Assembly (NCBI GenBank): GCA_026770595.1
Contig: MU633655.1
Location: forward strand, 1-32,583
Length of the DNA: 32,583 nucleotides
DNA from: Ochromonadaceae sp. CCMP2298
Taxonomy: Eukaryota; Sar; Synurophyceae; Ochromonadales; Ochromonadaceae
Reading direction: 5' to 3'
How positions within the stretch are numbered: position 1 is the stretch's first letter; the number at the start of each line of letters is the position of its first letter. Shown piece after piece: positions 1,794-30,379 of the stretch. The translations under genes and the position numbers were made by a program. Under the pieces are notes generated by a model that was given only the letters and a program-made list of their open reading frames with translations, did no database searches and was not told the origin of the DNA.

Positions 1794-1878
1794 AGATACC
1801 TTGCCTATACCTTGCAGGATCCCCATACCTTGAGGATTTCCAGCAGATACCTTGCAGGAGTCCCCTTGCAGGATGGAC
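1794..1878. repeat. ~19-bp minisatellite ending in the CFAP47 start codon
   Basis: Four to five imperfect copies of a unit close to ATACCTTGCAGGATCCCC. The clearest copies begin at about 1795, 1807, 1826 and 1848, with a final partial copy, CTTGCAGGATGG. The last partial copy contains the first in-frame ATG of CFAP47 (1873); where other copies read GGATCC or GGAGTCC, this one reads GGATGG. Confidence 0.7.
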
Positions 1879-11673: not shown

Positions 11674-14358
11674 TCAGTCGTACACGACCATGACTGCAGT
11701 GAGAGCGGCGATCTGCTTCAGCAGCTGCCTCTTGCCCAATTCCAAGGCGTTGCGCTGCTGCACCGTCTGGTTCCACACCTCTGGCAGGAACCAGTTCACC
11801 GAGGGGTGGCTCATGAAAAACTCCCCGGGGTAGGCGTAGTAGTCCTCGGGACCAGGCCCCTTGGCCATACGCATACGGCTCTTCAGCACATCGTTGCCCT
11901 TGTAGTGCTGCCGCACATTGCGCAGCCACCTGCAGAAGTGCTCCACCTCTGGCAAGGGGTAGGGGTCTTGAGTATCGTTGAAGAATTCGATCTTTTGAAG
12001 GGGTAGGGCGCGACCGGCATCGTAGTCGAACAGCCCGGCGTCCGCCAAGGGAGTCGCCCAGTCGCTGTGATCGTTGGCGTCGCCGCCACTCCCCTCGGGA
12101 AGTGGCCCTTTCCCCTGCTGGAGCATGAGCTCGATGGGTTGCAGGATGGGCAGCAGTTTAGTGAAGGCCTCGCTTCGCTTGGGCTTGTGGTCAAGGCAGA
12201 CGATTTGCTCGATGCTGTCTATGAAAATCCGGCCGAAGTTGTAGGACTGGTTGCAGAAGAATGGGTGCAGCAGGACCATCTGTATGGACGGCCGCTTCTC
12301 CTTGTCGTGGCTGAGCATAAGACTCAGAAGGTGCTGCAGCCATGCCGCGCGGGGCTCACCGGGCATATTAGGCAGAGTTGGCTTTTCTTGGTTCCAGATG
12401 CTCGACTCCTGTAGAAAGGGCCGGGTTCCAGCGTAGAGTTCCCACAAGACAACCCCCAGCATAAAGATGTCTCCCACCTGCTCCAGCGGCACGTCCATCT
12501 TCGCATTATCTGGGAGCGCCCTGAACAGCACCTGCACCTCGTAGGGTTGCATAGTCGTTAATGGGATCTTGGTTCTTGCAGTATTTCCATCGCGCTTGAT
12601 AATGCGCGCCAGGCCGAAGTCTGTTAGACGCAGGACGCCGTTCTGCATAATCAGCACATTCTCAGAGCGCAGGTCGCGGTGCACGAGAATCCCGTCATCC
12701 CTGAGTACACCGGGAGCGAAAGTAAGTGAGTACGAATAGAAGGTAATATGATGCAGGTAACATGATATGCATGAATAGAAGTGGACCGTACGTACACCTC
12801 ACATAGCACACTGGTCACACATACTGCACCCACCTGCTGTGAAGCGCTTTCACCGCCTGGCAGAGGGACTTGGCGAGCTTGAACTTGTCATCGGCGTCGA
12901 GGAAGGGGGCCATAGTGTTCTGCGTCATGAGATCTCTCAGGGTCATCGAGCCGACGTCCAGCACAAGCACATCTCTTTCCTCGGGCCCATATTCGGTTGT
13001 GAAGTGGGTGTGATATCTCACCACACCAAGCATGCTCCCGTCGGTGATGTGCTCCAAAATCTCAGCCTCCTTGGAGTTGTAGGGGTTCGCGCCTCTGAAG
13101 CGCAGGTGAGGAAGGGGTTGGTTGAGTTTAGTTGTAAAATATACGAAGTGATGGGTTTGGCGTGGGCAATAACAACTTACTTGCTGACTTTCACAGCCAC
13201 GTGCTTGCTTGATCTTGTGCCTGGTTTAGTGTAGATGCCGTAGTAGACTGTAGCTTCGGTGCCGTCGCCTAGCTGGTATGCAGCGTCAACTACAAGGGTC
13301 ACTCCTCTGTCAGAATGCAGCTTTTTGATTAGCTTTGAATTCTGCGCAGCGCCAGCGGGGCTTTGCAGAGTCGCGATCATCGCGGTCAGTTCCTCGAACT
13401 TGTCCTTCTTCTCCTTGTTCTTTGCGACGAGGAAGTCCAGTGTTTCTTTGAGCACACTTTCACCCTCGGTGTTGTATGCACACTCGGGAGGCCAGTCCTG
13501 CTCTGCCGCGACGAGCTGAAGATCTTGATGTTGAGCCCTGACACCGCCAACGCCACCACGGCCACCACCAGCGCCACGGCCAGCGCCAGCGCCACGGCCA
13601 CCACCGATTACGCCAACGCCACCACCACGGCCACCAACACCAACAACCATACCACCACCGCCACCACCAACGTCGTTTCCCCACGGATCCGTTAGAGGGG
13701 GGTTCACCATAACAGCATTTCCCCACGCATCCGTTGGAGGGGGTCTCACCGTAACAGCAGGACGAGGGGGGCTCACCACAGCCGGCTGAGTATTTCCTTT
13801 CCTTGTCTCTTTGCGATAGTCCTTTAAGCATTCGTCGAACCCAGTGACGAGGGGACTCAGCCCCACCATGAATAGCCCAAGCCTCTCGTTACGTAGATGG
13901 AGCTGTCCATCCACCACGTCCTGGATGAGCTGATTGATCGCACCCACTGCACCTGCCCCTTTAGAGCCAGCAGCGCAGATCATCACCGTGGCGGAAGTAT
14001 ACTCTGGCTTGTAGAAGAACTTCCCCTCAGCGGGGGGGGGGGCTACAAATACCTTAACCTTGAGGTGGGGGTACTTATAAAGCAGCGTCTCCAACAGATC
14101 TTGCCGAGTAACACCCTGTTGCACATTGCTCAGCTTTACGGTCATACGAGCCAGCTTGTTATACACAGCATCGTACTCGCCCCGTTTGATGCCGGGGCCT
14201 GTTATGTTCATTCCATTCTTCAGTCTGTTCTCCCAAAACTGATCTCGGAAAGTATCTATATCAAGGCCACGTCCGTCATCCCGTTCGCAGAATTTATCGC
14301 GGTCGTCGAACGAGCGCCAAAGATTATTCTCCTCAGACACAAGAAATTCCTCTGCCAT
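11674..14358 (-). CDS. Soluble protein kinase-KEN endoribonuclease (IRE1/RNase L-type), 3 exons, 821 aa
   Basis: Exons 14358-13181, 13094-12834 and 12700-11674 join in frame through GT-AG introns to 822 codons. Residues 1-200 form an unrecognised region; then come two 14-residue repeats (PPLTDPWGN / PPPTDAWGN), a Gly-rich stretch (about 224-275) and a kinase domain. Kinase motifs: loop LGDGTEATV (363-371), Lys390 in VAVK, HRDLRSEN (487-494), DFG (507-509). The C-terminal domain matches KEN nucleases: LRNVRQHY places Arg740, Asn741 and His745 where IRE1 has its catalytic Arg, Asn and His, and a YYAYPGEFF segment follows. Known for the family: kinase-driven dimerisation switches on RNA cleavage (HAC1/XBP1 splicing, RIDD, or RNase L decay). 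I see no signal peptide, luminal sensor, transmembrane segment or ankyrin repeats, so the input signal is unknown and the protein should be cytosolic or nuclear. Codon use is less GC-biased than in CFAP47 and NPHP4. Confidence 0.85.
12701..12833 (-). other. Intron 2 of the kinase-KEN gene (133 nt)
   Basis: Donor CAG|GTGGGT at 12833, acceptor TACTCAG| ending at 12701. Removal joins ALHSR to DDGILVHRDL, restoring the kinase catalytic loop. It contains repeated words (TTCTATTC twice, TTACCT twice). Confidence 0.85.
13095..13180 (-). other. Intron 1 of the kinase-KEN gene (86 nt)
   Basis: Donor GTAAGT at 13180, acceptor CTTCAG| ending at 13095. Splicing joins VAVKVSK to GANPYNSKEAEILEHI, a normal step from kinase strand 3 to helix C. 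Confidence 0.85.
13555..13690 (-). repeat. Gly-rich trinucleotide-type repeat within the kinase-KEN exon 1
   Basis: Imperfect GGN/GGC-type repeat (seen as cca/gcc on the + strand) encoding Gly with Val, Arg and Ala, about residues 224-268. It forms a flexible linker before the kinase and is likely length-polymorphic. Confidence 0.8.
13676..13759. repeat. 42-bp in-frame tandem duplication
   Basis: Two adjacent 42-nt units (13676-13717 and 13718-13759), 37 of 42 bases alike by eye, beginning tttccccacg and ending taacagca. Within the kinase-KEN reading frame they encode two 14-residue repeats ending in PWGN and AWGN. Confidence 0.88.
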
Positions 14359-16728: not shown

Positions 16729-18765
16729 TTACGCAGTGCCGTTGGTACTCTGGGAGTACGCACTATGGGGGGGGGAGTACGTGCTGAGGGAGTACTTGGC
16801 GCGCAGGCTGTCCACGTACATCCACTCCAACACGCGCGCGGGCGAGAGCACCTTGCAGTAGTGCAGGCCGGACAGGGGCGGTAGGGGGATGTGCAGGGGG
16901 GTGCAGAGGCTAGGAGAGCGCACCTGCACCGTCTCCCCGTCCTCGCTCTCCGCATACTCCAGCTCGTTCCAGATCCAGCAGGGGCCGGACCGCACGTCCA
17001 TGTCGGGGCCGATCGTGTATTTCTGCCCGTAGGCGGTGTAGCGGGCCAGGGTGGCGGGGCCGGCATGCGCGTGGGCCCAGTCCACACTCTGCTGGTTGAT
17101 TTCTCCGCACACGCCCATGCCGCCCCCCACCTCATCCCCACAGAAGTCGATGCCTGCGAGCCTATGCAGACTCTGGCGCGATTTCATCTTGGTCTTGAGC
17201 TCGAAGGCGGACAGCGGGAGGGAGCCTGTGTCCAGGTCCAGACCCCTGCTGTGGAAGTGGAGGTCCCAGATCTGCAGGTCCTCGCCTGTGTGGTAGCAGC
17301 CCTGGGTGGAGGTCTGCGTCCTTACCCCCTCATCGCTCCTCTGGACCTTGGGCAGACGTGTGCCAAAGGAGTCGGTGTTGGTCAGAGGGATGCCCTGCAG
17401 TCCGCCCATGGTGGCCTGCGAGACCGCACTGAAGGGACAGCCCGCGGTGCAACTGGAGCACTCGGTGGAGCACCGGGACACACAGGGCGGGCGGAAGTTG
17501 TGGTATCCTTCTAGGTGCAGGGCCTCCAGGAGGGGGGCGACGAAGGCGTGGGTCTGCGCCAATCGCTCCTGCATGGCCTGCTCACCCTCTAGGGCCCCCA
17601 GGACGGAGAGTGTCTTGGCACTCAGGAAGGCAGAGAAGTCGCGTGCGATGAGGCGGTGCGCCTCCGCGTAGGTACGCTCAGGCACCAGGTCTAGGCGGTA
17701 GACGCGGCTGGGGGGCAGACCGCTCGCGAACTGCATATGGGTGACACCCTGCACCACCACCTGTAGGAGGGTTTGATACATACAGAGTGGATCGGAGGGT
17801 TTAATATACATATACAGTGTAGATAGGAGGGTTTAATAAACATAAAAAATATATAGAGAGGGGGTTTAACGCACACATATAGTGTAGATAGGAGGGTTTA
17901 CCACGGGGAAAGAACTGTTTTCGAACGCGTTTTCGCATATGACAGCGGGGTCCAGCAGCTGCGAGTAGAAGGCCTCGGCGAAGCGTGTCACGCGGGCGAT
18001 CCCGTCCAGCTCTCCGCCGATAGTGAGCGTGGGAACGTTGTAATTAAACACATAGTCTTGCTTCCAGGAGCGGGCAAGGAAGGAGCCCATCAGCACCTGA
18101 GCCGTCACCTTGTCTGCATTCTCCGCAGTGTAGGCCTGCACCATGGCGCCCCCCAGCGAGTGGCCCGCCATAATCAGGGTGGTGGTGTTCATGCCCTTCT
18201 CCCGCATCTTCAGCAAAATGCGGTCCACGCCGCTGCCCACCTCGAAGGCAAAGTTGCCCGGGAACTGGGGAATACCCACCCACACGCTCAGATCTTTGGA
18301 CTCCAGCTGTACTGCTTTCATAAGCGGGATGTACGCATAGGGCTCGATCTCCGCGCCCTGGATCATGAGCACGCACACCTGCTTGCCCGAGGTCGAGCTG
18401 GGCTCCAGGATTACGTCTCCCTCCTCGATCGCGTAATCGAACGCGAGCAGGCCAACGACCAGGATAGAGAAGAGCATCGCCTGGCTGATAAAATTGAGGG
18501 CACAAGCCAAGATCTCGCCGAGCTCGGACAGAGGCGCCAAACCGGCGAGCAACGCCAGTCTGCCGTGCCTGACCTCCGCCTCAGCCTTGATCCAGTAGAG
18601 GCCATTCTTGGCCTGGGGCAGTGCGAAGGGGTCGAATGCGTTCATGCGGGCCACACGGGTGCGGGGAGCGGGGGTCTCGCCCTCCATGTAGAGGCGGGTC
18701 TGGCGAGCCACGGAGCGCTGCACGTTGAACGCGACAGCGACGTTAAGCAGGGCGAGGAAGCGCAT
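16729..18765 (-). CDS. Plastid-targeted LHC-like helix / alpha-beta hydrolase fusion, 2 exons, 631 aa
   Basis: Exons 18765-17902 and 17760-16729 join in phase 0. Residues 1-12 form a short signal peptide cut before Phe (AVA|FNVQ), then a basic Ser/Arg transit region: the bipartite presequence of red secondary plastids. Residues 61-73 (AEAEVRHGRLALL) match the E..HGR chlorophyll-binding helix of LHC/ELIP proteins; a membrane segment follows at about 92-110. From about 130 an alpha/beta hydrolase begins: nucleophile Ser203 in GHSLGG, likely acid Asp254 in GGELDG, likely base His296 in GVTHMQ, just after the intron. The substrate is unknown; plastid lipid or chlorophyll ester is a guess (chlorophyllases carry GHS.GG). 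A Cys-rich segment (about 380-400) and an unrecognised C-terminal domain (to 631, with YTAYGQKYTIG and GPCWIWNEL) follow. A nearby upstream ATG (18770) is out of frame. Divergent from NPHP4. Confidence 0.85.
17761..17901 (-). other. Intron of the LHC-hydrolase gene, built of ~32-bp tandem units (141 nt)
   Basis: Donor CCCGTG|GTAAAC at 17901, acceptor CCTACAG| ending at 17761. The intron consists almost wholly of about five imperfect units, each starting (T)AAACCCTCC and continuing TATCTACACTGTATATGTAT-like. The first unit supplies the donor and the last, truncated unit supplies the acceptor. Confidence 0.88.
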
Positions 18766-19113: not shown

Positions 19114-22100
19114 ATGTCCGACCTCGACGCGGACGAGAAGCCGTCCGACCGGACACGGAGGGAGCGAGATGAGAAATCTTCCTCCAAGGCGCTGCAGGTC
19201 AGGGAGCCTTCCAAGAAGGACGTGAAAGACGGAGAGAAGAAAAGGAATATGAAATGGACCGCGTTCACCCGGGCGAAGGTGTCTTTCGGCTTCCAGCACC
19301 TTAGCCCGGCCTACATCCCGGCCATGGTGGAGGACCCGCAGGGCTGGTGCATCTGCTTCGAGAAGGTCAGCGAGTGGAGCATCCCGGCCGCCGTAATGAA
19401 GGAGTTCGGAGACGGAGACTACGAGATCACAGCACAGCTCAGCCTCTCTTTGTTCCACCTGGCCTCCTCGACCTTCTACGGCACGACGTGGATGGGTCCC
19501 TCCGTCTCCCTGGCGCACGGGGACTCCGAGATCCCCAAGGTGTTCACCTTCGAGTACCCAGACATCGTCTACCTGCTCACACGCATCACAGACCCTACTT
19601 GCGTGGCCATCGTGGAGATCGTGGTCTCCAAGTTTGACCTGCGCAAGAACCTGACCGCCGCGCAGTTCGGCTGCGGCTGGACCATCCTCAACCTCTTCAA
19701 GAAGCCGCACCCGCCAGACATCGCAGAGGGCCACGAGAATGTGGACTTCACGAGCTGCGCGATCTTTGCGGGCAGTCCTCGCGACCTGATAATCAACACG
19801 GACATGAACGAGCTGCCCAAGACGCTGCAGGAGATCCCCGGCTGCTGCATCTACTTCAAGCTGTACCAGCACCGCAGACTGCTCAAGGCGCGCAACCTCG
19901 TCTCGGAGAACGCAGCCATGGGCAGGTTCGACACCGTAGCAGGCCTGGTGCCGCGCAGCGTGGTGCCCCCTGGAGCGCGCGGTCCCATGGACGTGTCGTG
20001 CATCGGAGACGAGGAGCACTTCGACAAGAGGGACGGAGTGCTCAGCCTGCCCGCCACCCCGCGTGTGGCCACAGGCATGCAGGTGAAGATCAGCAACTGC
20101 CAGCTGTACATGCCCAACAGACGTGCCATTGAGAACAAGATGATCGAGTCGTACGCGGCCATGGCGCAGATCCGGGACGTGTCTAAGGTGCAGATCCTCT
20201 CGAGGAGGCTTAGAGTGGGCCTGCACAACGGGAACACCGTGCTGGGCGGCGACTGGCAGACGCACAAGCTCATGGAGGACCCCAAGGCGCCCGACCTGCT
20301 GGACACAGAGGCGCGCGTGGTTGTGGTGGAGGGGTACACCCCTCACGTGTTCATGGCTTTGGCCTTCCTGGTGGAGTACGAGCTGGGCACACCTGCGCAG
20401 AAGATGACGCACTTCAACTCGCAAGCCATGGTGCGCTCCACCAGATGGCTGGACGGGCGCATGGTCACCACATTCACCGTCTGCGCCGCAGTGTACATCC
20501 CCTACGACGGGCGGCGGCTGCTTCTGCGCAACACGGGCGTGTCTAACCCGGACGAGGACGAGGTGGACATCAACCTGCCCCTGCTCAAGGACGAGGCATG
20601 CCGCATTCTCACAGGCCGCCCGCTGCTGGTCACCGAGCTGGGCAAGGACGCGGGCGGGAAGGAATCTGACAAGATGACGCTGCGTGCGGGCAACAAGGAG
20701 GGCGACGACGTGGCTGCGGTGCAGGGCAGTGGCGCGCAGCTGGAGGAGGACGACCCGGGCACCCCCCTGCTGGGCTTCGACCTGCGCGTGGTGCACCCAC
20801 TCAAGGGGGAGCTGGCGCACAACACGGACATGGCAGAGGTGCTGGAGATGGACAGGAACAAGAGCTCGCGCAGGCTGGAGGCGGAGCGGGAGGTGGACCG
20901 CAAGCATGCCGAGCTGGTGGACGCGGACTCCAAGGGCTCTGGGGACGAATTGGACGTGGACGCCACTGGCCGCTCCCGCACCTTCCGCCAGAAGTCTTTC
21001 GGCACCTTAGGCAAGACCGAGGACCGCGACATGCTGGTGCGCGAAAGTCTGCGCTCCACGCGCGAGCTGGGGGGAACCCTGCGCTCCCGCACGCGGGACC
21101 TTGACGACGACGCCGCCTCACTACCGGACAGCATCGTGACAGGGGACTCGCATCACTCCTCTCTGCGCCTGGACGCGCTCTACTACACCTCACAGGGCAG
21201 GACAAGGGACCCGCGCTCGCAGTCCGGGGCTGGCTGGGACGCGCTGTCGGAGCGATCAGACGAGGCGGGGGGCATGCGCGGCATGACGATGCGGGACACT
21301 CGGTTCTCAGTGCCCAGAGAGCGCACCTCTTTGCTGGCCCAGTCTCTGCAGAGCAAGCTGGTCTCGCAGGAGCACGCTGGCCAGAACCTGCTGCAGAGCA
21401 GAGAGCAGCTGCCTGCAGGGGCGGGCATCCCTCCGCAGCGCAGGGACGGCCCCATGACAGTAGCGCCCAAGACCATGGCCAGCAGCAACGCCGCGCACAT
21501 GCGGGAGATCAGCAGGGGCGGGCGATCTCGTCTGAACCGCCACGGCTTCGACGGGGCCATCGTGGACACTTCTCTGGCTGCGGGCGTGGAGGCCAGGGGG
21601 GAGCGGCGCGTGACTGACGGCCGCAACGTGGTGGTGGATGTGGAGCTGGAGGCACGCGACGAGCGCTCCCTGCACGAGATCAACATACAGTTCGCGGGAT
21701 ACCGCTCGGGCGCCAAGCCTCACCAGTCGGTAGCCCCGGACATGACGATGAACCACTACCTGCCAAGAGCTGTGTACTTCTCGTTCCAGTTCTACTCCTG
21801 CATGCCCACGCGCACAGAGGTCATGCGCCTGCTGCCTGCGGAGCCGGGGCAGCTGTGCGTGCTGGCCAGAGACGAGGCCTACGCGCGGGAGGAGACCCCG
21901 CTCACTTTGCGCTTCCTGATCGACTGCTCCACTGCGTCTCCCAACGAGGCAGCGGAGTTCGCAGAGTACCTGGCGGGCAGCGCGCTCTACGTGGACGTGT
22001 GGGACGCTAACTCGCTGCTGCACCTGGGCACCTGCGGCATCCCTCTGCGGCGCCTGATGCGGCAGGGGCAGCATGCGGTGAAGCAGGCAGTGGAGTGCGA

Positions 22101-25100
22101 CGTGATCAACGCAGAGGTGGGCGCGGGGCAGGCTAACGGGGGCATCAGCAGCACCTACGTGGCGGAGGGCGGGCCCTTCTCCGGCACAGTGGTGGGCGCC
22201 GTGCAGGTCATCATGTCCAACACGGGAGAGAAGGGCAGGGGCCCCTCACCTAGGAACGCACGCAGCTCCTCCTCTGGGAAGCCTCTCTACCACATCGAGA
22301 ACGACGACCTCTTCCCCATGGAGGGACTCAACTGGCGGGCGCTGGCGGAGGGGCAGGGCGCGGGGCCCTCTGGCGGCAGGATGCTGAGTCGGCCCAAGAA
22401 CTCTGTGCGCGCCAAGCCTCTGTCCGAGAGCTCACCCGAACTGCACAAGGCGCTCTCGGACGTGCGCCGATCCGCAGACCACTCGCGCGGTCCCTCCCTG
22501 CGCTCCCTGACGAGCCAGCGCGGCGCTCCTGGTGTGTGCACGCTGACGTACGACGAGGTGGCCATCATCTTCAAGCGCTTCAGAGGCGTGATGAAGGGCA
22601 CGGTGCAGTACTCGGGCGACCTGCTGTCTCTACTGGACATGCCTAGTCTGGGGGTTGCGCTGAAGAAACTGGTGCAGGCGTACAAGAAGTTTGGGGACCA
22701 CGAAGCCATGATGAAGGAGATACTGAGACACTCGGGTGCGGAGAGCTCGCTGGGGGCGCGAGACCTGGAGGAGTTCTTCCGCGTGCTGTTCGCCAAGACG
22801 TACCTGAAGTGCAGGCCGGAGGAGCTCACGCTGCTGGCACAGAGGTTCGTGACCAACGGGGGCGGGGAGCAGGTCACGGCGACGCAGGTGGCGGACTTCT
22901 GTGCAGAGGAGGCGGACCGCAGCGAGTGGGCGCTGGTGGGGCAGAGGCTGCGTCTGGCTGCGCAGAGGGCGGCTCTGGAGGGCGCAGACGCAGAGCAGAT
23001 GCTGTCCGAGCACGACGTGAGCGGGTCTCACCACATCAACAGCAGCCGCTTCAAGGACTTCCTGCGCGCGCTGAACAAGTTCGGAAACCTCTCCCCCAAG
23101 GACGTGAATCTATGCGCGCGCCACTTCTCGCGCAGGGCCAGGGGCGCGGACGTGGACAGGGACCCGGTCTCTCTGCGGGAGGTGACGGCCTTCCTGGGCA
23201 TCGAGTACGTGGGCAACCTGCAGCTGCGCGTGAGGAAGGTGGTGGCGGAGCGACCCAAGGGCCCCCCAGACGTGCAGGAGATGCTGCAGATGCTGGTGCA
23301 GGCTAGGGGCGGGCGCTCTGACACTGCTCAGCAGTACTCGTACGAGGAGGTGGAGGAGGCGATGGGGCAGCTGGGAGTGTACGCGGAGGTGTCGCACGAG
23401 CAGGCGAAGGGTCTGCTCAGGCGCATGGACGTGAAGGGCACTGGGCGGCTCAGTGCAGTGCAGGTGCTCAAGTTCCTAGACGTGCCGTTCAAAGCCAGCG
23501 ACCTAAGTGACGCCGCAGCGCAGGGACAGGTGGAGGAGGCGGCCCCTGTGGATGTGGAGGCCCTGCTGCGTCTGCTGCTGGAGAAGGTGCGGGGCAGTGG
23601 CGTGGACGTGGTGGAGGCCTTCAGGCACTTCGACGCTAACGGGGACGGCTCTATCTCCAGACAGGAGCTGACGCAGGGCCTCACCAAGCTGGCCATATTC
23701 GAGCAGGTGTCGGACTGGAAGAGGCAGATGCCCTCTCTCATACGCAAGTTCGACAAGGACGGCAGCGGGGACGTGTCTCTGAGGGAGTTCTTCGCCTTCC
23801 TGGGCATCGCGGACTACGCGCCCAACATCATTCAGCGCATGACGAAGATATTCGCATTCGCGGCGCAGAAGAAGGTGTCAGTGAGGGACATATTCGAGCA
23901 CCTGGACAGCGACAAGAGCGGCTTCCTGGACGCGGGGGAGATCGAGAAGGGACTGAAGGAGCTGGGGGAGTTCGGGGAGGTGACGCGCGCAGACGCAGAG
24001 GCAGTGGTGACTCACTTCGACGACAACGGGGACAAGAAGGTGTCCATCGACGAGTTCGTGGCCTTCTTCACAGCGAGGGTGAACCAGGCATTGAAGGAGA
24101 GGCGCAAGAAGCGCACAGACAAGGTGGCGGCCATTCTGCGCAAGACCATGACCGGCGCCATGCGCAAGGGCGGCGCCTCTCTGCGAGACATCTTCGGGCA
24201 CCTGGACAAGGACAGCAGCGGCAACATCGACACCGCGGAGCTGGTGCAGACGATCATCAAGCTGCCCACCTTCCAGAAGATGAAGCTCACCGACCAGGAC
24301 GCCAGTGACCTCATGGCCACGCTGGACGAGGACGGCAGCGGGGACGTGGCCTTTTCCGAGTTCGAGAGCTTCGTGGTGGGGGACGACTCTTTCGAGGACT
24401 CCATGGTCTCCCTAGGCACCAACAGCCCCGTGACGCTAGTGGACCGCATCCGCGCCACCTTCAAGCTGGCCCAGGAGAAGGGTTTGTCCTTCGAGCAGGC
24501 CTTCCAGCTGCTGGACGCGGACGGCAGTAATGGGGTGACCGTGGACGAGCTGCACGTGGCACTACAGAGGCTGCCCAACTTCAAGGGCGTGGGCCTACGG
24601 GAGGTGCAGGAGCTGTTCGAGGCCATGGACACGGACCGCAGCGGGCAGGTCACGGTGAGGGAGTTCGGAGACTTCATTAAGAGCGGGACCCTGCGCGCGG
24701 ACAAGCGCGCTGCCAAGGGCGGGGACAGGGACGGGGACAAAGGTGGGCCCATGGACGCTACTCGGGCCAAGGAGCTATTCGTACGACACCTGCACCGCAT
24801 CGCGCAGATCGACGGCAGCGTGAGTGCTCTGCTGGCCTACCTGGACGACGAGCAGGACGGGCTGATCAAGCTGACCTCCTTCCGGGCCCTGCTGCGCAGA
24901 GAGGACGTCTTCGACAGCGTGCCAGAGCAGGCTGTGGATCTCATGCTGGAGCCGCTGCTGCAGGACAGGCAGCACATACGCGCAGGCGCTCTGCTGCGCT
25001 TCATCGAGGGCAGGAAGGCTCTGGACGTGGGCTCGGGCGAGGGCAAGGAGGGCGAGGAGGGGGAGCTGACGGTGCTGCAGCGCGACTACGACTTCTCTCC

Positions 25101-27060
25101 CGACCCCGAGATCCGCACTCTGGAGAAGAAGGTCCGGGGCTTCGGGCGCATTTTGGCCAAGAAGGGCGTGGACGTGGAGGGGCTCTTCCAGTACTTCGAC
25201 CCCAAGGAGAGCGGGGCCGTGAGACGCACAGAGCTGCTGGAGGTCTTGTCTAGGCTGGGCATGTACCTGCTGGAGGAGGGCAAGGTGCTGCAGCAGGGGG
25301 CGGACGCGGAGAACGACATGGCTCGCATGCAGAAGACGCAGCTGTCGAGACTCATGGGCACGGGGGGCGCGTACGCGCAGAACGCGCCCCGTATGGCTCG
25401 CAAGCTGCTGATGAGCGCGGGGGAGCCCTCCGAGAGCGACTTCAAGGACCACCTGGAGTCGATGACGCTGGTGAACTGGTACCGGCAGAGCCAGAAGGAG
25501 ATGCTGCTGCAGAGGGTGCTCTCCCACTCGCTGGCACACACAGTGCGCATCTACCCGCGCTTCGGCCGCACCAGCTTCTTCGAGTTCCCCACCACCAACC
25601 CCTTCGCGCACGAGGAGAGGTTCCAGATCGAGGTGGGGGACCCGGAGCTGCGCCTGGTGACCGCCTTCGACGAGTGGCTGCACCTCAGACGCTGCTGCAG
25701 GCCCGCCCTGGGGGAGCTGGGGCCCGAGCCCGTGGAGGCGGAGATGTTCGACAGGGACGCTGCGGGCACGGTGCAGGTGGCACTGCTGCCGCACGAGACG
25801 CTGCACCTGCCCTTCACCTTCATGACGCTCACCCCCTACATGCCTGAGTCGCGCCTGCCAGACAAGCGCCAGCAGAGACAGTCCCTACAGGCGCAGCAGA
25901 GCAGCAGGTGGGACCGGGACCGGGACAGGGGGGAGGGCAAGGAGGGCGAGTCCAAGAGCGCAGAGCAGGAGGAGGACGTGCTTCAGGCAGAGGAGCCGCA
26001 CCGCACCGTGGAGGTGAAGGTGGTCTCCTGCACGCACGGGCACATAGTGGCCATCATCAAGGTGCTCGTCTGCCCACGACCCTTCGTGCTGCACCGCACA
26101 CTGCGCTTCCAGGAGCCTGAGAACACAGTGATGAAGAGGCGCATCCAGATTCTGGGCGCAGAGCACGCGCCCTCCTACCCCGGAGACTTCTCCACCGCCA
26201 ACAAGTACGTGCACTGCGTGGAGGGGGGTGCACCCGCACCGGGCACTGTCGGCGCCGCCGCCCCCTCTGGCGAGAAGGAGCAGAGCCGCGTGGTGGTGGA
26301 GTGGGGCCCCTCCTCTGGGGACCAGTTCGCATCCTCCGGTGCTCTGGATCTGCTGCTGCGCTACCGCTGCGGCGCCTTCCCCTCCACAGGCGCCTTCTAC
26401 CTGCTGATCTACAACGACCCCTACCAGAGCCAGCTGCACGAGGTGTGGCAGGTGGTGGTGCAGACACGGCAGCGCCTGGACCTGCACTGCAACCTGGGCT
26501 GCGCGGCCTCTGCGGACCTCGTAGTGAGGGGGGACCGCTTCGCCCGCAGAGTGCGCGCCTACGCTCTGAGCTCCCCTGCAGACTCTGTGGCCTTCAAGCC
26601 TGACAATGTCTTCCAACTGGTGCCTGGCGCATACAACCGCGTGGCGGTGACGGTGAGTCCTAGGGCGGTGGGCTTCCGCACGGTGCAGCTGAACCTGGTG
26701 GACGAGGACTCAAGGGAGCTGGTCTCCGCATGGCTGCTCGCAGTGTCCGCATCCAGTCCAGCAGTGCTGCGCAGCTACGACGTGGAGGTGCCTGCGGGTC
26801 GGTCTCTGCACAAGAAGATCGTGTTCAAGAACCCCTGGGACGTGCCCAGGCACTTCCAGCTGTCCTCCTCGGACCCGGCACTCATGCGCCCGCGCAGCGC
26901 ATCTGTGGAGGTTGCGGCCCTGGGCAGCGCCTACCTGCGCCTGTGGTTCAGCGGGCTGGAGTCGGGCGGGGCGGGCGTGCGCGAGGTGCACCTGTTCCTG
27001 AACGACTCCAAGGGGGGCCAGAACGAGGAGTGCTACCTGTTCCGCGTGAGGGACGTGTAG
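19114..27060 (+). CDS. NPHP4: NPHP4 (nephrocystin-4) with a central EF-hand array (2648 aa)
   Basis: Single exon, ATG context aggATGt. Both ends match nephrocystin-4. N-terminal half: a C2-like region with SLFHLASSTFYGTTWMG (about 112) and FGCGWTILNLF (about 185), RVGLHNGNTVLG (about 366), then INIQFAGY (about 857), YFSFQFYSCMPTRTE (about 889) and ALYVDVWDANSLLHLG (about 958). C-terminal half from about 2113: VRIYPRFGRTSFFEF, PRPFVLHRTLRF, VQLNLVDEDSRELVSAWLL, ending at NEECYLFRV. Human NPHP4 is about 1,430 aa; the excess is mainly residues 1136-2050. There I count eight canonical EF-hand loops (near 1504, 1545, 1597, 1634, 1697, 1735, 1799 and 1836, e.g. DANGDGSISRQE, DKDGSGDVSLRE) and about five degenerate ones. 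NPHP4 is a scaffold of the ciliary transition zone (NPHP1-4-8 module). The EF-hands imply calcium binding, which is my inference. Confidence 0.92.
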   Translation: MSDLDADEKPSDRTRRERDEKSSSKALQVREPSKKDVKDGEKKRNMKWTAFTRAKVSFGFQHLSPAYIPAMVEDPQGWCICFEKVSEWSIPAAVMKEFGDGDYEITAQLSLSLFHLASSTFYGTTWMGPSVSLAHGDSEIPKVFTFEYPDIVYLLTRITDPTCVAIVEIVVSKFDLRKNLTAAQFGCGWTILNLFKKPHPPDIAEGHENVDFTSCAIFAGSPRDLIINTDMNELPKTLQEIPGCCIYFKLYQHRRLLKARNLVSENAAMGRFDTVAGLVPRSVVPPGARGPMDVSCIGDEEHFDKRDGVLSLPATPRVATGMQVKISNCQLYMPNRRAIENKMIESYAAMAQIRDVSKVQILSRRLRVGLHNGNTVLGGDWQTHKLMEDPKAPDLLDTEARVVVVEGYTPHVFMALAFLVEYELGTPAQKMTHFNSQAMVRSTRWLDGRMVTTFTVCAAVYIPYDGRRLLLRNTGVSNPDEDEVDINLPLLKDEACRILTGRPLLVTELGKDAGGKESDKMTLRAGNKEGDDVAAVQGSGAQLEEDDPGTPLLGFDLRVVHPLKGELAHNTDMAEVLEMDRNKSSRRLEAEREVDRKHAELVDADSKGSGDELDVDATGRSRTFRQKSFGTLGKTEDRDMLVRESLRSTRELGGTLRSRTRDLDDDAASLPDSIVTGDSHHSSLRLDALYYTSQGRTRDPRSQSGAGWDALSERSDEAGGMRGMTMRDTRFSVPRERTSLLAQSLQSKLVSQEHAGQNLLQSREQLPAGAGIPPQRRDGPMTVAPKTMASSNAAHMREISRGGRSRLNRHGFDGAIVDTSLAAGVEARGERRVTDGRNVVVDVELEARDERSLHEINIQFAGYRSGAKPHQSVAPDMTMNHYLPRAVYFSFQFYSCMPTRTEVMRLLPAEPGQLCVLARDEAYAREETPLTLRFLIDCSTASPNEAAEFAEYLAGSALYVDVWDANSLLHLGTCGIPLRRLMRQGQHAVKQAVECDVINAEVGAGQANGGISSTYVAEGGPFSGTVVGAVQVIMSNTGEKGRGPSPRNARSSSSGKPLYHIENDDLFPMEGLNWRALAEGQGAGPSGGRMLSRPKNSVRAKPLSESSPELHKALSDVRRSADHSRGPSLRSLTSQRGAPGVCTLTYDEVAIIFKRFRGVMKGTVQYSGDLLSLLDMPSLGVALKKLVQAYKKFGDHEAMMKEILRHSGAESSLGARDLEEFFRVLFAKTYLKCRPEELTLLAQRFVTNGGGEQVTATQVADFCAEEADRSEWALVGQRLRLAAQRAALEGADAEQMLSEHDVSGSHHINSSRFKDFLRALNKFGNLSPKDVNLCARHFSRRARGADVDRDPVSLREVTAFLGIEYVGNLQLRVRKVVAERPKGPPDVQEMLQMLVQARGGRSDTAQQYSYEEVEEAMGQLGVYAEVSHEQAKGLLRRMDVKGTGRLSAVQVLKFLDVPFKASDLSDAAAQGQVEEAAPVDVEALLRLLLEKVRGSGVDVVEAFRHFDANGDGSISRQELTQGLTKLAIFEQVSDWKRQMPSLIRKFDKDGSGDVSLREFFAFLGIADYAPNIIQRMTKIFAFAAQKKVSVRDIFEHLDSDKSGFLDAGEIEKGLKELGEFGEVTRADAEAVVTHFDDNGDKKVSIDEFVAFFTARVNQALKERRKKRTDKVAAILRKTMTGAMRKGGASLRDIFGHLDKDSSGNIDTAELVQTIIKLPTFQKMKLTDQDASDLMATLDEDGSGDVAFSEFESFVVGDDSFEDSMVSLGTNSPVTLVDRIRATFKLAQEKGLSFEQAFQLLDADGSNGVTVDELHVALQRLPNFKGVGLREVQELFEAMDTDRSGQVTVREFGDFIKSGTLRADKRAAKGGDRDGDKGGPMDATRAKELFVRHLHRIAQIDGSVSALLAYLDDEQDGLIKLTSFRALLRREDVFDSVPEQAVDLMLEPLLQDRQHIRAGALLRFIEGRKALDVGSGEGKEGEEGELTVLQRDYDFSPDPEIRTLEKKVRGFGRILAKKGVDVEGLFQYFDPKESGAVRRTELLEVLSRLGMYLLEEGKVLQQGADAENDMARMQKTQLSRLMGTGGAYAQNAPRMARKLLMSAGEPSESDFKDHLESMTLVNWYRQSQKEMLLQRVLSHSLAHTVRIYPRFGRTSFFEFPTTNPFAHEERFQIEVGDPELRLVTAFDEWLHLRRCCRPALGELGPEPVEAEMFDRDAAGTVQVALLPHETLHLPFTFMTLTPYMPESRLPDKRQQRQSLQAQQSSRWDRDRDRGEGKEGESKSAEQEEDVLQAEEPHRTVEVKVVSCTHGHIVAIIKVLVCPRPFVLHRTLRFQEPENTVMKRRIQILGAEHAPSYPGDFSTANKYVHCVEGGAPAPGTVGAAAPSGEKEQSRVVVEWGPSSGDQFASSGALDLLLRYRCGAFPSTGAFYLLIYNDPYQSQLHEVWQVVVQTRQRLDLHCNLGCAASADLVVRGDRFARRVRAYALSSPADSVAFKPDNVFQLVPGAYNRVAVTVSPRAVGFRTVQLNLVDEDSRELVSAWLLAVSASSPAVLRSYDVEVPAGRSLHKKIVFKNPWDVPRHFQLSSSDPALMRPRSASVEVAALGSAYLRLWFSGLESGGAGVREVHLFLNDSKGGQNEECYLFRVRDV
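22520..25260 (+). other. EF-hand-repeat region inside NPHP4
   Basis: Domain-level annotation of the segment that separates the conserved NPHP4 halves (about residues 1136-2050). Paired EF-hands appear as three or four calmodulin-like lobes with spacers of about 40 residues. Eight loops keep Asp at position 1, Gly at 6 and Glu at 12, the calcium-binding pattern; those near 22561, 22990, 23413, 24836 and 25190 have lost ligands. Confidence 0.85.
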
Positions 27061-27424: not shown

Positions 27425-30379
27425 ATGAAGGGCAAGGTCGAGGCGAAGAAGGCCGCATTGGCGGTTTTTAGGGCGGTGGATTGGAAGCTGTTCGAGGTGC
27501 AGTCGCTGCTGATCGCGGAGGATGTCAGCGAGGAGGACGTGGAGGAGAGCGTGCGCTGGCTGCAGACGAAGCACTACGACGACGTGGTGGAGGAGCGTAC
27601 GAATGACGATAGGTGCGGCTACCCGCTCTGCACGCACCCCCTCACCAGAGCCGCCACCGGCCCCTACCGCGTCGCGTACAACGAAAAGAAGGTCTACGGC
27701 GTGGAGGTCAGCAGTCTTTACTGCAGCGCCGCCTGTGTGGAGAAGGCGCAGGTGCTGATGAGTCGCTTCGAGGCCACTCTGCCGCACTCCAGACCGGTCG
27801 CCAGGACATTGGACTTGGCTGCCTCCCAGGAGAACAACTTCGACGACGTGCTGGCTATGCTGGGACCAGGCACCAGCCCCACCAAGGACAGTGGGTCTGC
27901 CAGCAAGGCGGAGGACTTGCACGCGCCGCCCCCGCCTGCCTTCGAGAGCGCTCGCGTGTCTCTCACAGGCGCGGTGCCTCTGCAGCTGGTGGATGGAGTG
28001 CCGCAGGGATCACCTGCCCCCGCCCCTACAGCCCAGAAGACAGAAAGCTCTGCTGAAGGCGACAAGCAGGGCCGCGGCTCTCCTGTCAAAGGGTCTGGCG
28101 AGTCTGGCGAGTATGCCTACGCGTGGAAGGGTGAGGGCGAGGAGGGCGAGGAGGGCGAGGAAGGGGGGGAGGCGGGAGAGGCGGGGGAGGAGGGAGGGGA
28201 AGGGGATGATGGCGAGCAGGAGGCGATCTCTGCGCTACACAGATTTGTCTTAGCGCCCAGCGGTGCTCCCAGTCCCAGCAAGGGTGGCAGGGGCACAAGG
28301 CTGTTGGGGGCGGTGGCGCGGGCTGGGGAGGACGCGGAGGAGAGCGGGGACGCCACTGCCTCCCAACCCGCTCTCTCGGGCCCTCGGGGCGGCAGGGGCG
28401 GTGCGCGCGGGGGCAGCGGTGTCTTGGCGGAGAAGCCTGACGCGCAGAGCATGTCTGACATGTTCGCAGCCATGAGAGACATGCGGGCCAAGTACGGGGT
28501 GGGCGAGGGCAGCCCCAGCTCCAAGAAACAGACAGGGCCCTCCTCACCCGCCTCCTCCACTGGCAACGCACCGGAGCCAACGGGTGCGGGCACAGCGGGC
28601 AGCGCAGACAACCGGTTTCTGAACGGCAGCATCCTGCAGAAGGCCGCGGTGACGGAGCACCAGCACGCAGAGGTCAGCGACCTGGCTCAAGCAGTGGGCC
28701 TAACCAGACCAGACAGCGCCTCGAGCAGCACCAGCAGCAGCACGGGCAACACAGCCAGGAAAGGCGCGGGCAACTCGGGCTCCCGGCCGGGCGCCAAGAA
28801 TGTGTCGTGGGGTGCAAACGAGGTCTCCCTCATCTCCGCCGACGCCCCAGTCTCTGCCACGGCGGCACTCCCGGCACCAGCGCCCATCACAGTCGTCTCA
28901 CAGACAGGCCCCAGCAAACCGCCCACCCCCGTGCGCCGCACTAACAGCATGATGAGCACCACGGTAATGGAGCGTGTGCAGCCCAAGTACCTCTCCGCAG
29001 CAGCCATCATGCGCAAGCGAGAGCCCGAGAGAGACGAAGAGGCCGAGAGAGAGGCAGAGGCGGAGTTTTACAGCAGGAGGGGCCAGGGGATGGGCGCAGG
29101 GGCAGTGCCCACTCTCCGCTCTTCGGCTTCGGCGCCTCTGCTGCCCCGTGCGGACGATTATTCCCGCCCGGAGCCCCAGGGGCAGGAGGGTGCCCGCTTA
29201 GACGCAGGCATCGCAGGCTCCACTGCCACTGGTGCGCAGGAGGGGGGCGCGGGTTTGTACGCGGTGCTGGGCGGGTCGCCGGAGCTGGCTGCGGACGCTG
29301 CGGCTGCGTCCATGTCGATCGAGGGCTACATCGCGGAGATCAAGGACAGCATCAGAGTGGCCCCCTCCACCACTATGGCCAGCCTATCGCACCAGCCATT
29401 CCCGCCCAGGCAGCGAGAGGCAGGCACGAGCAGTGGGGGGGCAGAGGGCGAGCGCAAGGCTAAGGGCGACGGCAGCGGCGCTGCTGCCTCCGTGGAGGGT
29501 GAGGACGAGGAGGACGAGGAGGCTGTGGGTGCCTACGAAGAGGAGGAGGAGGAGGAGGAGCAGGGGCAGTGGGAGGACGATGACGCCGACGTCGGCTTTG
29601 ATCCGGACGAGGGCAAGGGGGCCTCTACTGCCCCTGCGCGCAGTCTGTTCATCACAGTGTGGGCGGTGATGGACGACCTGTTCGGATACTCAGCCAGCGC
29701 CTTCGACGACAGGGACACACAGGCGCCCGCACCAGCACCCAGCAGCGGCAGTGGTAGTGGGGCGAGCGACGCGGGCGAGGACGAGGGCAGGTCCGCCTTC
29801 GCGATGGAGCAGGAGCAGGCCGTGCAGTCCATGCTGCGTCTGCTGCAGAGGGGCCTCACCTCTGCGGAGCGTCTGCTGGATCTCAACCAGAGGCACCTGC
29901 AGCTGCGGGAGGAGCGGGAGCAGTACAACCGCACCAAGCACCGCCTGCTGGCTGCGGCCACCAAGCTGCAGCGACGTGTCTCCGCTTCGTCGAAGGGGGA
30001 TGCGGCTGCGGCTACTGGGCTGACGGGCAGCGGCTGGTCTCTGATCGGTCTGCTGATCGTGGACGCCATCGTGGTCAAGAAGAGGCTGGGGCCGCTGGCA
30101 GGGGCCAAGGAGGACGCCAGCAGCGACGAGAGCAAGGTCGACAATGGCAGTGGCAGCGGCAATCGCGAGATTAGCAGTGCAGGGGCCGGGGCATCGACAG
30201 CATCGGCATCGGGGGGCGCAGGGGCACGGCAGGGTGTGGCGGAGGCTGTCTGGGCGGCGCAGGTGGAGGCGCTGGCTGCGGGGTTGCTGGGGGGCGGGCG
30301 GGCGGTGCAGAAGGCGCAGCTGCGAGAGGGCGACCTGCAGATCCTTCGCAGCTTCTTCGACCACGTGGCCTCCCTCTGA
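27425..30379 (+). CDS. RPAP2: RPAP2/Rtr1-family RNA polymerase II CTD phosphatase-like protein (984 aa)
   Basis: The N-terminal 130 residues carry the Rtr1/RPAP2 zinc-binding fold: helices, YDDVVEERTNDDRCGYPLC, then VSSLYCSAACVEK. Cys64, Cys69, Cys100 and Cys104 fit the family's zinc ligands. Rtr1/RPAP2 proteins dephosphorylate Ser5 (and Tyr1) of the RNA polymerase II C-terminal repeat and help import and assemble the polymerase. After about residue 135 come long disordered stretches with two acidic blocks (about 235-262 and 693-735). A helical C-terminus holds a Leu/Gln/Glu/Arg coiled-coil-like segment (about 793-856) and a hydrophobic helix (WSLIGLLIVDAIVV, about 871). Single exon, ATG context ggaATGa. 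It is longer than human RPAP2 (about 610 aa), mostly through low-complexity sequence. The family call rests on the zinc module; catalytic activity is inferred. Confidence 0.85.
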   Translation: MKGKVEAKKAALAVFRAVDWKLFEVQSLLIAEDVSEEDVEESVRWLQTKHYDDVVEERTNDDRCGYPLCTHPLTRAATGPYRVAYNEKKVYGVEVSSLYCSAACVEKAQVLMSRFEATLPHSRPVARTLDLAASQENNFDDVLAMLGPGTSPTKDSGSASKAEDLHAPPPPAFESARVSLTGAVPLQLVDGVPQGSPAPAPTAQKTESSAEGDKQGRGSPVKGSGESGEYAYAWKGEGEEGEEGEEGGEAGEAGEEGGEGDDGEQEAISALHRFVLAPSGAPSPSKGGRGTRLLGAVARAGEDAEESGDATASQPALSGPRGGRGGARGGSGVLAEKPDAQSMSDMFAAMRDMRAKYGVGEGSPSSKKQTGPSSPASSTGNAPEPTGAGTAGSADNRFLNGSILQKAAVTEHQHAEVSDLAQAVGLTRPDSASSSTSSSTGNTARKGAGNSGSRPGAKNVSWGANEVSLISADAPVSATAALPAPAPITVVSQTGPSKPPTPVRRTNSMMSTTVMERVQPKYLSAAAIMRKREPERDEEAEREAEAEFYSRRGQGMGAGAVPTLRSSASAPLLPRADDYSRPEPQGQEGARLDAGIAGSTATGAQEGGAGLYAVLGGSPELAADAAAASMSIEGYIAEIKDSIRVAPSTTMASLSHQPFPPRQREAGTSSGGAEGERKAKGDGSGAAASVEGEDEEDEEAVGAYEEEEEEEEQGQWEDDDADVGFDPDEGKGASTAPARSLFITVWAVMDDLFGYSASAFDDRDTQAPAPAPSSGSGSGASDAGEDEGRSAFAMEQEQAVQSMLRLLQRGLTSAERLLDLNQRHLQLREEREQYNRTKHRLLAAATKLQRRVSASSKGDAAAATGLTGSGWSLIGLLIVDAIVVKKRLGPLAGAKEDASSDESKVDNGSGSGNREISSAGAGASTASASGGAGARQGVAEAVWAAQVEALAAGLLGGGRAVQKAQLREGDLQILRSFFDHVASL

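What the first reader, a model, noticed from the sequence alone, without database searches (positions are those of the whole stretch)
19114..27060. NPHP4 split by a large EF-hand array
Both halves of nephrocystin-4 are clearly present, but about 900 residues with eight intact and about five decayed EF-hand loops sit between them in one uninterrupted exon. I know of no such fusion in animals or Chlamydomonas. It would place a calcium sensor directly in the transition-zone gate, a possible link between calcium and flagellar protein entry.
Basis: partly seen in the sequence, partly recalled or inferred. Interest (0 to 1): 0.75.

Follow-up and report, generated by a model that had tools for sequence, protein, structure and literature searches.

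The report
Ciliary gate protein with calcium-binding insert
In this alga, and in unnamed relatives, the ciliary gate protein NPHP4 carries a long string of calmodulin-like units in its middle, which might let calcium act directly on the gate at the base of the flagellum.

Summary
One open frame (19114-27060, +, 2648 aa) encodes both halves of nephrocystin-4, matching a named bird NPHP4 over three stretches (E 2e-50, 3e-18, 3e-11). An EF-hand array of about 910 residues lies where two plain NPHP4s have a linker of 112-118: eight canonical loops, plus about eight to ten decayed units by my reading of the predicted fold. Of 23 database proteins found besides the window's own, 14 have NPHP4 plus the same array and five more run from NPHP4 into its first 50-60 residues. 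Trees of N-half, array and C-half largely agree (r 0.90-0.97). It is the only NPHP4 found in this genome. The loop at aa 1507 is canonical in 13 of 13 fusion proteins and that at 1547 in 12 of 13; the others come and go. Most likely the array is a calcium-responsive spacer between the C2 and Ig/ASH halves at the transition zone. Calcium binding, location and function are inferred. The nearest precedent I found in print is Paramecium RPGRIP1L, whose EF-hands were dispensable for deciliation.

The parts
19114..27060 (+). NPHP4 with internal EF-hand array, 2648 aa, single open frame with stop
   Evidence: the only NPHP4 found in the assembly
19231..20403 (+). NPHP4 N-terminal part (aa 40-430), including the RRLRVGLHNG motif
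   Evidence: BLASTP of aa 108-373 to bird NPHP4, 56 bits; precomputed Pfam set largely shared with bird NPHP4
21631..22233 (+). NPHP4 central C2-type domain (aa 840-1040)
   Evidence: BLASTP of aa 780-1039 to bird NPHP4, 79 bits; 51% mean pairwise identity among 8 fusion proteins
22540..25263 (+). tandem EF-hand array (aa 1143-2050)
   Evidence: Pfam EF-hand_7 5.6e-48; model read as eight EF-hand pairs; colinear, wholly or in part, in 14 relatives
22540..23508 (+). decayed EF-hand units N-terminal to the canonical ones (aa 1143-1465)
   Evidence: model; loop at 1301 canonical in 5 of 13 fusion proteins but not here
23632..23667 (+). EF loop 1, aa 1507-1518
   Evidence: canonical in 13 of 13 fusion proteins, this one included
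23752..23787 (+). EF loop 2, aa 1547-1558
   Evidence: canonical in 12 of 13 (not in P0014)
23905..23940 (+). EF loop 3, aa 1598-1609
   Evidence: canonical in 9 of 13
24019..24054 (+). EF loop 4, aa 1636-1647
   Evidence: canonical in 6 of 13, 11 aligned
24205..24240 (+). EF loop 5, aa 1698-1709
   Evidence: canonical in 9 of 13, 12 aligned
24325..24360 (+). EF loop 6, aa 1738-1749
   Evidence: canonical in 7 of 13, 11 aligned
24514..24549 (+). EF loop 7, aa 1801-1812
   Evidence: canonical in 7 of 13, 9 aligned
24628..24663 (+). EF loop 8, aa 1839-1850
   Evidence: canonical in 11 of 13, 12 aligned
24766..25263 (+). decayed EF-hand units C-terminal to the canonical ones (aa 1885-2050)
   Evidence: model (with low confidence after about aa 1970); 41% and 57% mean pairwise identity among 8 fusion proteins
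25426..27057 (+). NPHP4 C-terminal half: helix followed by tandem Ig/ASH-like domains (aa 2105-2648)
   Evidence: BLASTP to bird NPHP4 184 bits, 2e-50; predicted beta-sandwich chain, top 20 fold matches are central-apparatus chains

Best explanation
This is an NPHP4 ortholog whose short linker, between the central C2 domain and the C-terminal Ig/ASH domains, has been replaced by a chain of about eight EF-hand pairs; the fusion is conserved and most likely arose once (shared insertion point and matching trees shown; a single gain inferred). The most likely working: the protein sits in the transition zone as NPHP4 does elsewhere (inferred from orthology). The array forms a long jointed spacer between the two partner-binding halves (inferred from anatomy). 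When calcium rises in the flagellum, the well-kept pair at aa 1507-1558, and lineage by lineage some of the other pairs, bind calcium and change shape. This alters the spacing or tension between the halves, and so the gate, or less likely the shedding of the flagellum (inferred, not shown).
For: Both halves match bird NPHP4 and six of its seven precomputed NPHP4-type Pfam accessions are shared. The array stands where the two plain NPHP4s have 112 and 118 residues; ten fusion proteins have 953-1224 there. 14 of 23 database proteins found have the same fusion, and trees of the three parts largely agree. The 1507/1547 pair is the best kept of the four canonical pairs (52% mean pairwise identity against 27-37%) and its loops are canonical in 13/13 and 12/13. 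A B9 domain and a CC2D2A-type domain, parts of the transition-zone MKS module (recalled), are in the same genome. In the literature, depletion of NPHP4 in Paramecium prevents Ca2+/EtOH deciliation (PMC7093003 abstract), and both the central C2 domain and the ASH-bearing C-terminus of mammalian NPHP4 bind KIF13B (PMC5290278 passages).
Against: Seven of the eight canonical loops are non-canonical in at least one of 13 fusion proteins, and about half of the EF units are decayed here, so much of the array may be only structural. EF-hands on the Paramecium partner RPGRIP1L were dispensable for deciliation (PMC7093003 section 14). In the same paper, cells depleted of CEP290, RPGRIP1L or NPHP4 did shed their cilia once permeabilised and given calcium (passages), so there NPHP4 acts before calcium entry and not as its reader. 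There are no RNA, protein, location or binding data for this protein. RPGRIP1L was not found in this genome (neither search had a positive control).
Confidence: 0.5

Rival explanations
1. The array is mainly a structural spacer or docking rod, like the tandem EF-hand proteins built into doublet microtubules; calcium binding is residual or constitutive and no signal is read.
For: About half of the EF units are decayed. The eleven best fold matches of the array are chains of Tetrahymena, Leishmania and Trypanosoma doublet-microtubule maps. Among the 60 sequence matches shown of 291, radial spoke protein 7 is the best that is not a calmodulin or a calmodulin fusion. Decayed units next to the NPHP4 halves are conserved at 57-58% identity. 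EF-hands of Paramecium RPGRIP1L were dispensable.
Against: The loops at 1507 and 1547 stay canonical in 13/13 and 12/13 fusion proteins, although eight of the relatives are only 35-46% identical to this protein; a purely structural role would not require that.
Confidence: 0.36
2. Ordinary NPHP4 and an unrelated EF-hand gene joined by assembly or by a mechanical ORF reading.
For: The assembly is in 724 contigs; no transcript data. Five relatives lose similarity early in the array and P0022 before it.
Against: 14 relatives from four sources have the same fusion at the same point. The five short ones already run into the first 50-60 residues of the array and end at nearly the same place (reference aa 1194-1204), as expected of an intron.
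Confidence: 0.02
3. The fused protein has left the transition zone and works elsewhere in the flagellum, for example on the axoneme.
For: The array resembles axonemal EF-hand proteins; the C-half fold resembles central-apparatus Ig/ASH proteins.
Against: It is the only NPHP4 found in the genome, the genome keeps MKS-module domains, and the ordered NPHP4 parts are conserved at 41-61% mean pairwise identity among 8 fusion proteins.
Confidence: 0.1

Closest known systems
Nephrocystin-4 (NPHP4/POC10), animals and protists
   Same: N-terminal part, central C2 domain and C-terminal Ig/ASH half in the same order
   Different: Bird NPHP4 (P0024) and the plain P0015 have 118 and 112 residues where this one has 1064; a home-made EF-hand profile finds none in them. 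PF26173 is in the bird's precomputed list but not in this one
Paramecium RPGRIP1L with C-terminal EF-hands (PMC7093003)
   Same: A transition-zone protein that gained EF-hands in a protist; RPGRIP1L as a partner of NPHP4 is general knowledge
   Different: Different protein, EF-hands at the C-terminus and not inside; shown dispensable for deciliation
Tandem EF-hand proteins of the axoneme: Tetrahymena CFAP115 (four EF-hand pairs, PMC10105768 passage), radial spoke protein 7
   Same: Long chains of EF-hand pairs in cilia; best fold matches, and best sequence match after calmodulins. Which chain of the doublet maps is CFAP115 was not established
   Different: Not fused to NPHP4; whole-length TM-scores are low (0.07-0.12 by query length), so only the repeat type is shared
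Calmodulin / centrin
   Same: Single EF-hand pairs match calmodulin lobes (several rows with rmsd 1.1-2.2 A over 63-69 residues)
   Different: About eight pairs in tandem inside a scaffold protein

Membership tests
NPHP4 (nephrocystin-4) | N-terminal and central C2-type region homologous to a named NPHP4 | tested here: met
   56 and 79 bits to P0024
NPHP4 (nephrocystin-4) | C-terminal Ig/ASH-type half homologous to a named NPHP4 | tested here: met
   184 bits, E 2e-50; profile comparison probability 100 over 468 columns; beta-sandwich model
NPHP4 (nephrocystin-4) | Same Pfam family set as a named NPHP4 | tested here: met
   6 of the bird's 7 precomputed accessions present (PF26186, 26187, 26189, 26190, 26015, 28126); PF26173 missing. 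The Pfam copy gave no NPHP4-named match
NPHP4 (nephrocystin-4) | Single NPHP4 of its genome (ortholog and not extra paralog) | tested here: met
   All four matches of bird NPHP4 in G000 lie in this gene; the assembly may be incomplete
NPHP4 (nephrocystin-4) | Location at the transition zone and gate function | not testable with these tools
   no expression or imaging data
EF-hand calcium-binding proteins | Canonical 12-residue loops in paired helix-loop-helix units | tested here: met
   8 loops, Pfam EF-hand_7 5.6e-48, paired units in the model
EF-hand calcium-binding proteins | Measured calcium binding | not testable with these tools
   needs a binding assay
Axonemal tandem EF-hand proteins (CFAP115 type) | Whole-length structural match | tested here: inconclusive

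The most novel reading that the evidence does not exclude
A lineage of algae has built a calcium sensor into the ciliary gate itself: NPHP4 there is a calcium-operated adjustable strut across the transition zone, with one obligatory calcium-binding pair and a set of evolvable extra pairs that tune length or sensitivity, coupling flagellar calcium directly to protein entry or flagellar shedding.
Probability: 0.33. Interest if true: 0.82.

Novelty: new variant of a known kind. Interest (0 to 1): 0.63.

Why it matters
Calcium triggers flagellar shedding, and NPHP4 is needed for Ca2+/EtOH deciliation in Paramecium (PMC7093003 abstract). Calcium is linked to the transition zone through centrin fibres in Chlamydomonas (PMC6070942 passages), but my searches listed nothing that ties it to NPHP4 itself through a built-in sensor. 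A gate protein that carries its own conserved calcium sites would make that link testable in one molecule by changing two loops.

Tried and rejected
Considered and rejected: assembly join or two genes (14 relatives fused at the same point). Chance motif matches (8 loops against at most 1 in 2000 shuffles). Repeated independent insertions (N, array and C trees agree, r 0.90-0.97, except for the place of P0004, whose support is 0.30 in the N tree, 0.97 in the array tree and, for the conflicting place, 0.81 in the C tree). The trees hold fusion proteins only, so an older gain followed by losses in plain NPHP4s is not excluded.

Led nowhere: the Pfam copy found no NPHP4 model; its best match to the C-half was E 0.18. 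phmmer of the N and C parts against solved structures gave nothing better than E 0.55, and of bird NPHP4 nothing at 0.01. The rRNA search of the genome did not complete. RPGRIP1L family searches of the genome gave nothing and had no positive control, so absence is not shown. A tRNA scan of the window found none.

The first two scored only the 7992 and 7990 candidates sharing most words, so the spread of the fusion is a lower bound and plain NPHP4s of close relatives may have been missed. The third (P0015 query, 3320 candidates) found only itself and the bird protein. EukProt and metagenome hits bear no usable species names. Chlamydomonas NPHP4 was not returned. Rows dropped: the loop count used 13 fusion proteins, the 15 minus P0016 and P0017, because its alignment was made before those two were found; it allowed shifts of up to 4 residues and a looser motif (D or E at position 12) than the shuffle test. 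The trees used 10 full-length fusion proteins of 15, and the conservation table 8 of those 10 (P0011 and P0016 left out as near relatives of P0010 and P0014). P0006 covers only part of the array core, and P0014 and P0016 lack one pair.

Literature: searches listed no paper that describes an NPHP4 with EF-hands in its title or abstract start. I saw passages of PMC7093003, PMC5290278, PMC10105768, PMC6070942 and PMC8535419, section 14 of PMC7093003, and only listings of the rest, so 'not in print' holds for those searches alone.

Full report
What is in the sequence. The + strand frame 19114-27060 has 2648 codons without an internal stop. Bird NPHP4 (P0024, named 'NPHP4 protein' of Calyptomena viridis by its source) aligns to three stretches of the translation: aa 108-373 (56 bits), aa 780-1039 (79 bits) and aa 2105-2645 (184 bits, E 2e-50). 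The stored Pfam lists of the database show six of the bird protein's seven accessions in this protein as well; that these accessions are NPHP4 families is taken from the bird protein and from recall. The Pfam copy that I could run myself found only EF-hand families in the whole protein and nothing significant in the NPHP4 parts. When bird NPHP4 is searched against the whole 11.2 Mb assembly, its four matches all lie in this gene.

The array. Between the two NPHP4 halves lie 1064 residues, of which about aa 1143-2050 form an EF-hand array. Eight loops fit the strict canonical motif: aa 1507, 1547, 1598, 1636, 1698, 1738, 1801 and 1839. Shuffled sequence gave a mean of 0.02 and at most one. A profile built from such loops finds eight hands here and none in the two plain NPHP4s P0015 and P0024 (the eight were part of the profile's own training set). 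An AlphaFold model of aa 1140-2110 (mean pLDDT 70, pTM 0.36) shows helix-loop-helix units that I read from its secondary structure as eight pairs, four with canonical and four with decayed loops; one decayed single unit at each end is less certain.

It is conserved. Three protein searches returned 23 proteins besides the window's own. Fourteen carry NPHP4 sequence plus the array, wholly or in part: P0002-P0012, P0014, P0016, P0017. Nine of these also cover nearly all of the C-half, and P0017 part of it. Five (P0013, P0018-P0021) run from NPHP4 into the first 50-60 residues of the array and lose similarity at reference aa 1194-1204; the shared break suggests an intron there, which this gene lacks. 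P0022 loses similarity before the array (reference aa 1021). P0015 and P0024 are plain NPHP4, and P0023 has EF-hands only. The sources of the 14 are labelled eukprot, jgi, ena and lgn. The linker is 953-1224 residues in ten full-length fusion proteins, against 112 and 118 in the plain ones. Genomic context of the relatives was not available.

Probably one origin. Trees of the N part, the array and the C part of ten full-length fusion proteins have the same groupings except for the place of P0004 (support 0.30 in the N tree, 0.97 in the array tree, and 0.81 for another place in the C tree). Patristic distances correlate at 0.97 (N-array), 0.96 (N-C) and 0.90 (array-C). With the shared insertion point this speaks for one gain and inheritance with NPHP4. 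Plain NPHP4s were not in the trees, so an older gain with later losses remains possible.

What is kept and what drifts. The loop at 1507 is canonical in 13 of 13 fusion proteins and that at 1547 in 12 of 13; the one at 1839 in 11 (12 aligned); the other five sites in 6 to 9. A loop that is decayed here (aa 1301) is canonical in 5 of 13. Mean pairwise identity among eight fusion proteins is 52% for the 1507/1547 pair, against 27-37% for the other three canonical pairs and 26-42% for the decayed pairs. The flanking decayed units next to the NPHP4 halves reach 57-58%, the ordered NPHP4 parts 41-61%, and the disordered stretch and linker 25% and 33%. P0004 has extra, nearly identical pairs (sequence, profile hits), so the array also grows by duplication. 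This looks like one near-obligatory calcium site pair, two conserved joints, and a tunable remainder.

Folds. The array's eleven best Foldseek matches are chains of doublet-microtubule maps of Tetrahymena, Leishmania and Trypanosoma. The best sequence matches are calmodulins and radial spoke protein 7 (60 of 291 rows seen). Whole-length superposition is poor (TM about 0.1), so the match says tandem EF-hand pairs and no more. The C-half is predicted as a helix followed by a chain of beta-sandwich domains (mean pLDDT 72), and its top 20 fold matches are chains of the ciliary central apparatus, as expected for Ig/ASH domains; unrelated Ig proteins follow.

The organism. The assembly holds 21 matches to the light-harvesting family. 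For one of them the best solved relative after multi-domain LHCI chains is VCPI-8; for the other one tried it is FCPI-7 of another entry. By recall of where such proteins occur I would guess an ochrophyte; this is not shown. A B9 domain (170 bits) and a CC2D2A-type C2 domain (58 bits) show that transition-zone genes are present.

How it may work. [quoted passage not shown] Its depletion there prevents Ca2+/EtOH deciliation, and the authors suggest defective calcium influx, since permeabilised depleted cells do shed (PMC7093003, abstract and passages). In mammals its central C2 domain and its ASH-bearing C-terminus each bind KIF13B (PMC5290278, passages). Calcium-driven contraction of centrin fibres in the Chlamydomonas transition zone is thought to help shedding, and Chlamydomonas nphp4 mutants have abnormal flagellar protein content (PMC6070942, passages). 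The array sits exactly between the C2 and ASH halves. A calcium-sensitive spacer there would change how far apart, or how tightly, the two halves hold their partners. That is inference. Against it stand two results from Paramecium: RPGRIP1L without its EF-hands still supported normal deciliation (PMC7093003 section 14), and NPHP4 acts there before calcium entry. A role in the gate is therefore likelier than a role in reading the shedding signal.

Verdict. The finding is confirmed and strengthened: a conserved NPHP4 with an internal EF-hand array, probably of single origin. It is a new variant of a known family. The calcium-gate idea is the best explanation but only moderately likely, the main rival being a largely structural rod.

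Noticed in passing
window 1852-11307 (+): Open frame of 3151 codons with many HYDIN/CFAP65/CFAP47/ASH-type Ig domains: a second giant ciliary gene about 8 kb from the NPHP4 gene.
   Followed up: no
window 27425-30379 (+): RPAP2/Rtr1-family protein with a long low-complexity tail, about 360 bases downstream of the NPHP4 stop.
   Followed up: no
window 17866-18762 (-): Alpha/beta-hydrolase reading frame preceded by a stretch weakly like chlorophyll-binding proteins (E 0.0048, below the curated cut-off); the same open frame continues antisense over the NPHP4 5' end, probably a GC-rich shadow frame.
   Followed up: partly
window 11677-12684 (-): C-terminal part of a protein kinase domain; its start lies outside this frame, so the gene probably has introns.
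   Followed up: no
P0004 aa 1720-2069: Several nearly identical EF-hand pairs in tandem in this relative: a recent lineage-specific growth of the array.
   Followed up: partly
P0013, P0018, P0019, P0020, P0021 C-terminal ends: Five relatives lose similarity at nearly the same point of the array (reference aa 1194-1204), suggesting a shared intron that the window gene lacks.
   Followed up: partly
P0023 (3556 aa): A very long EF-hand-rich protein without the NPHP4 accessions in its stored Pfam list, with a source name that looks like Tetraselmis.
   Followed up: no
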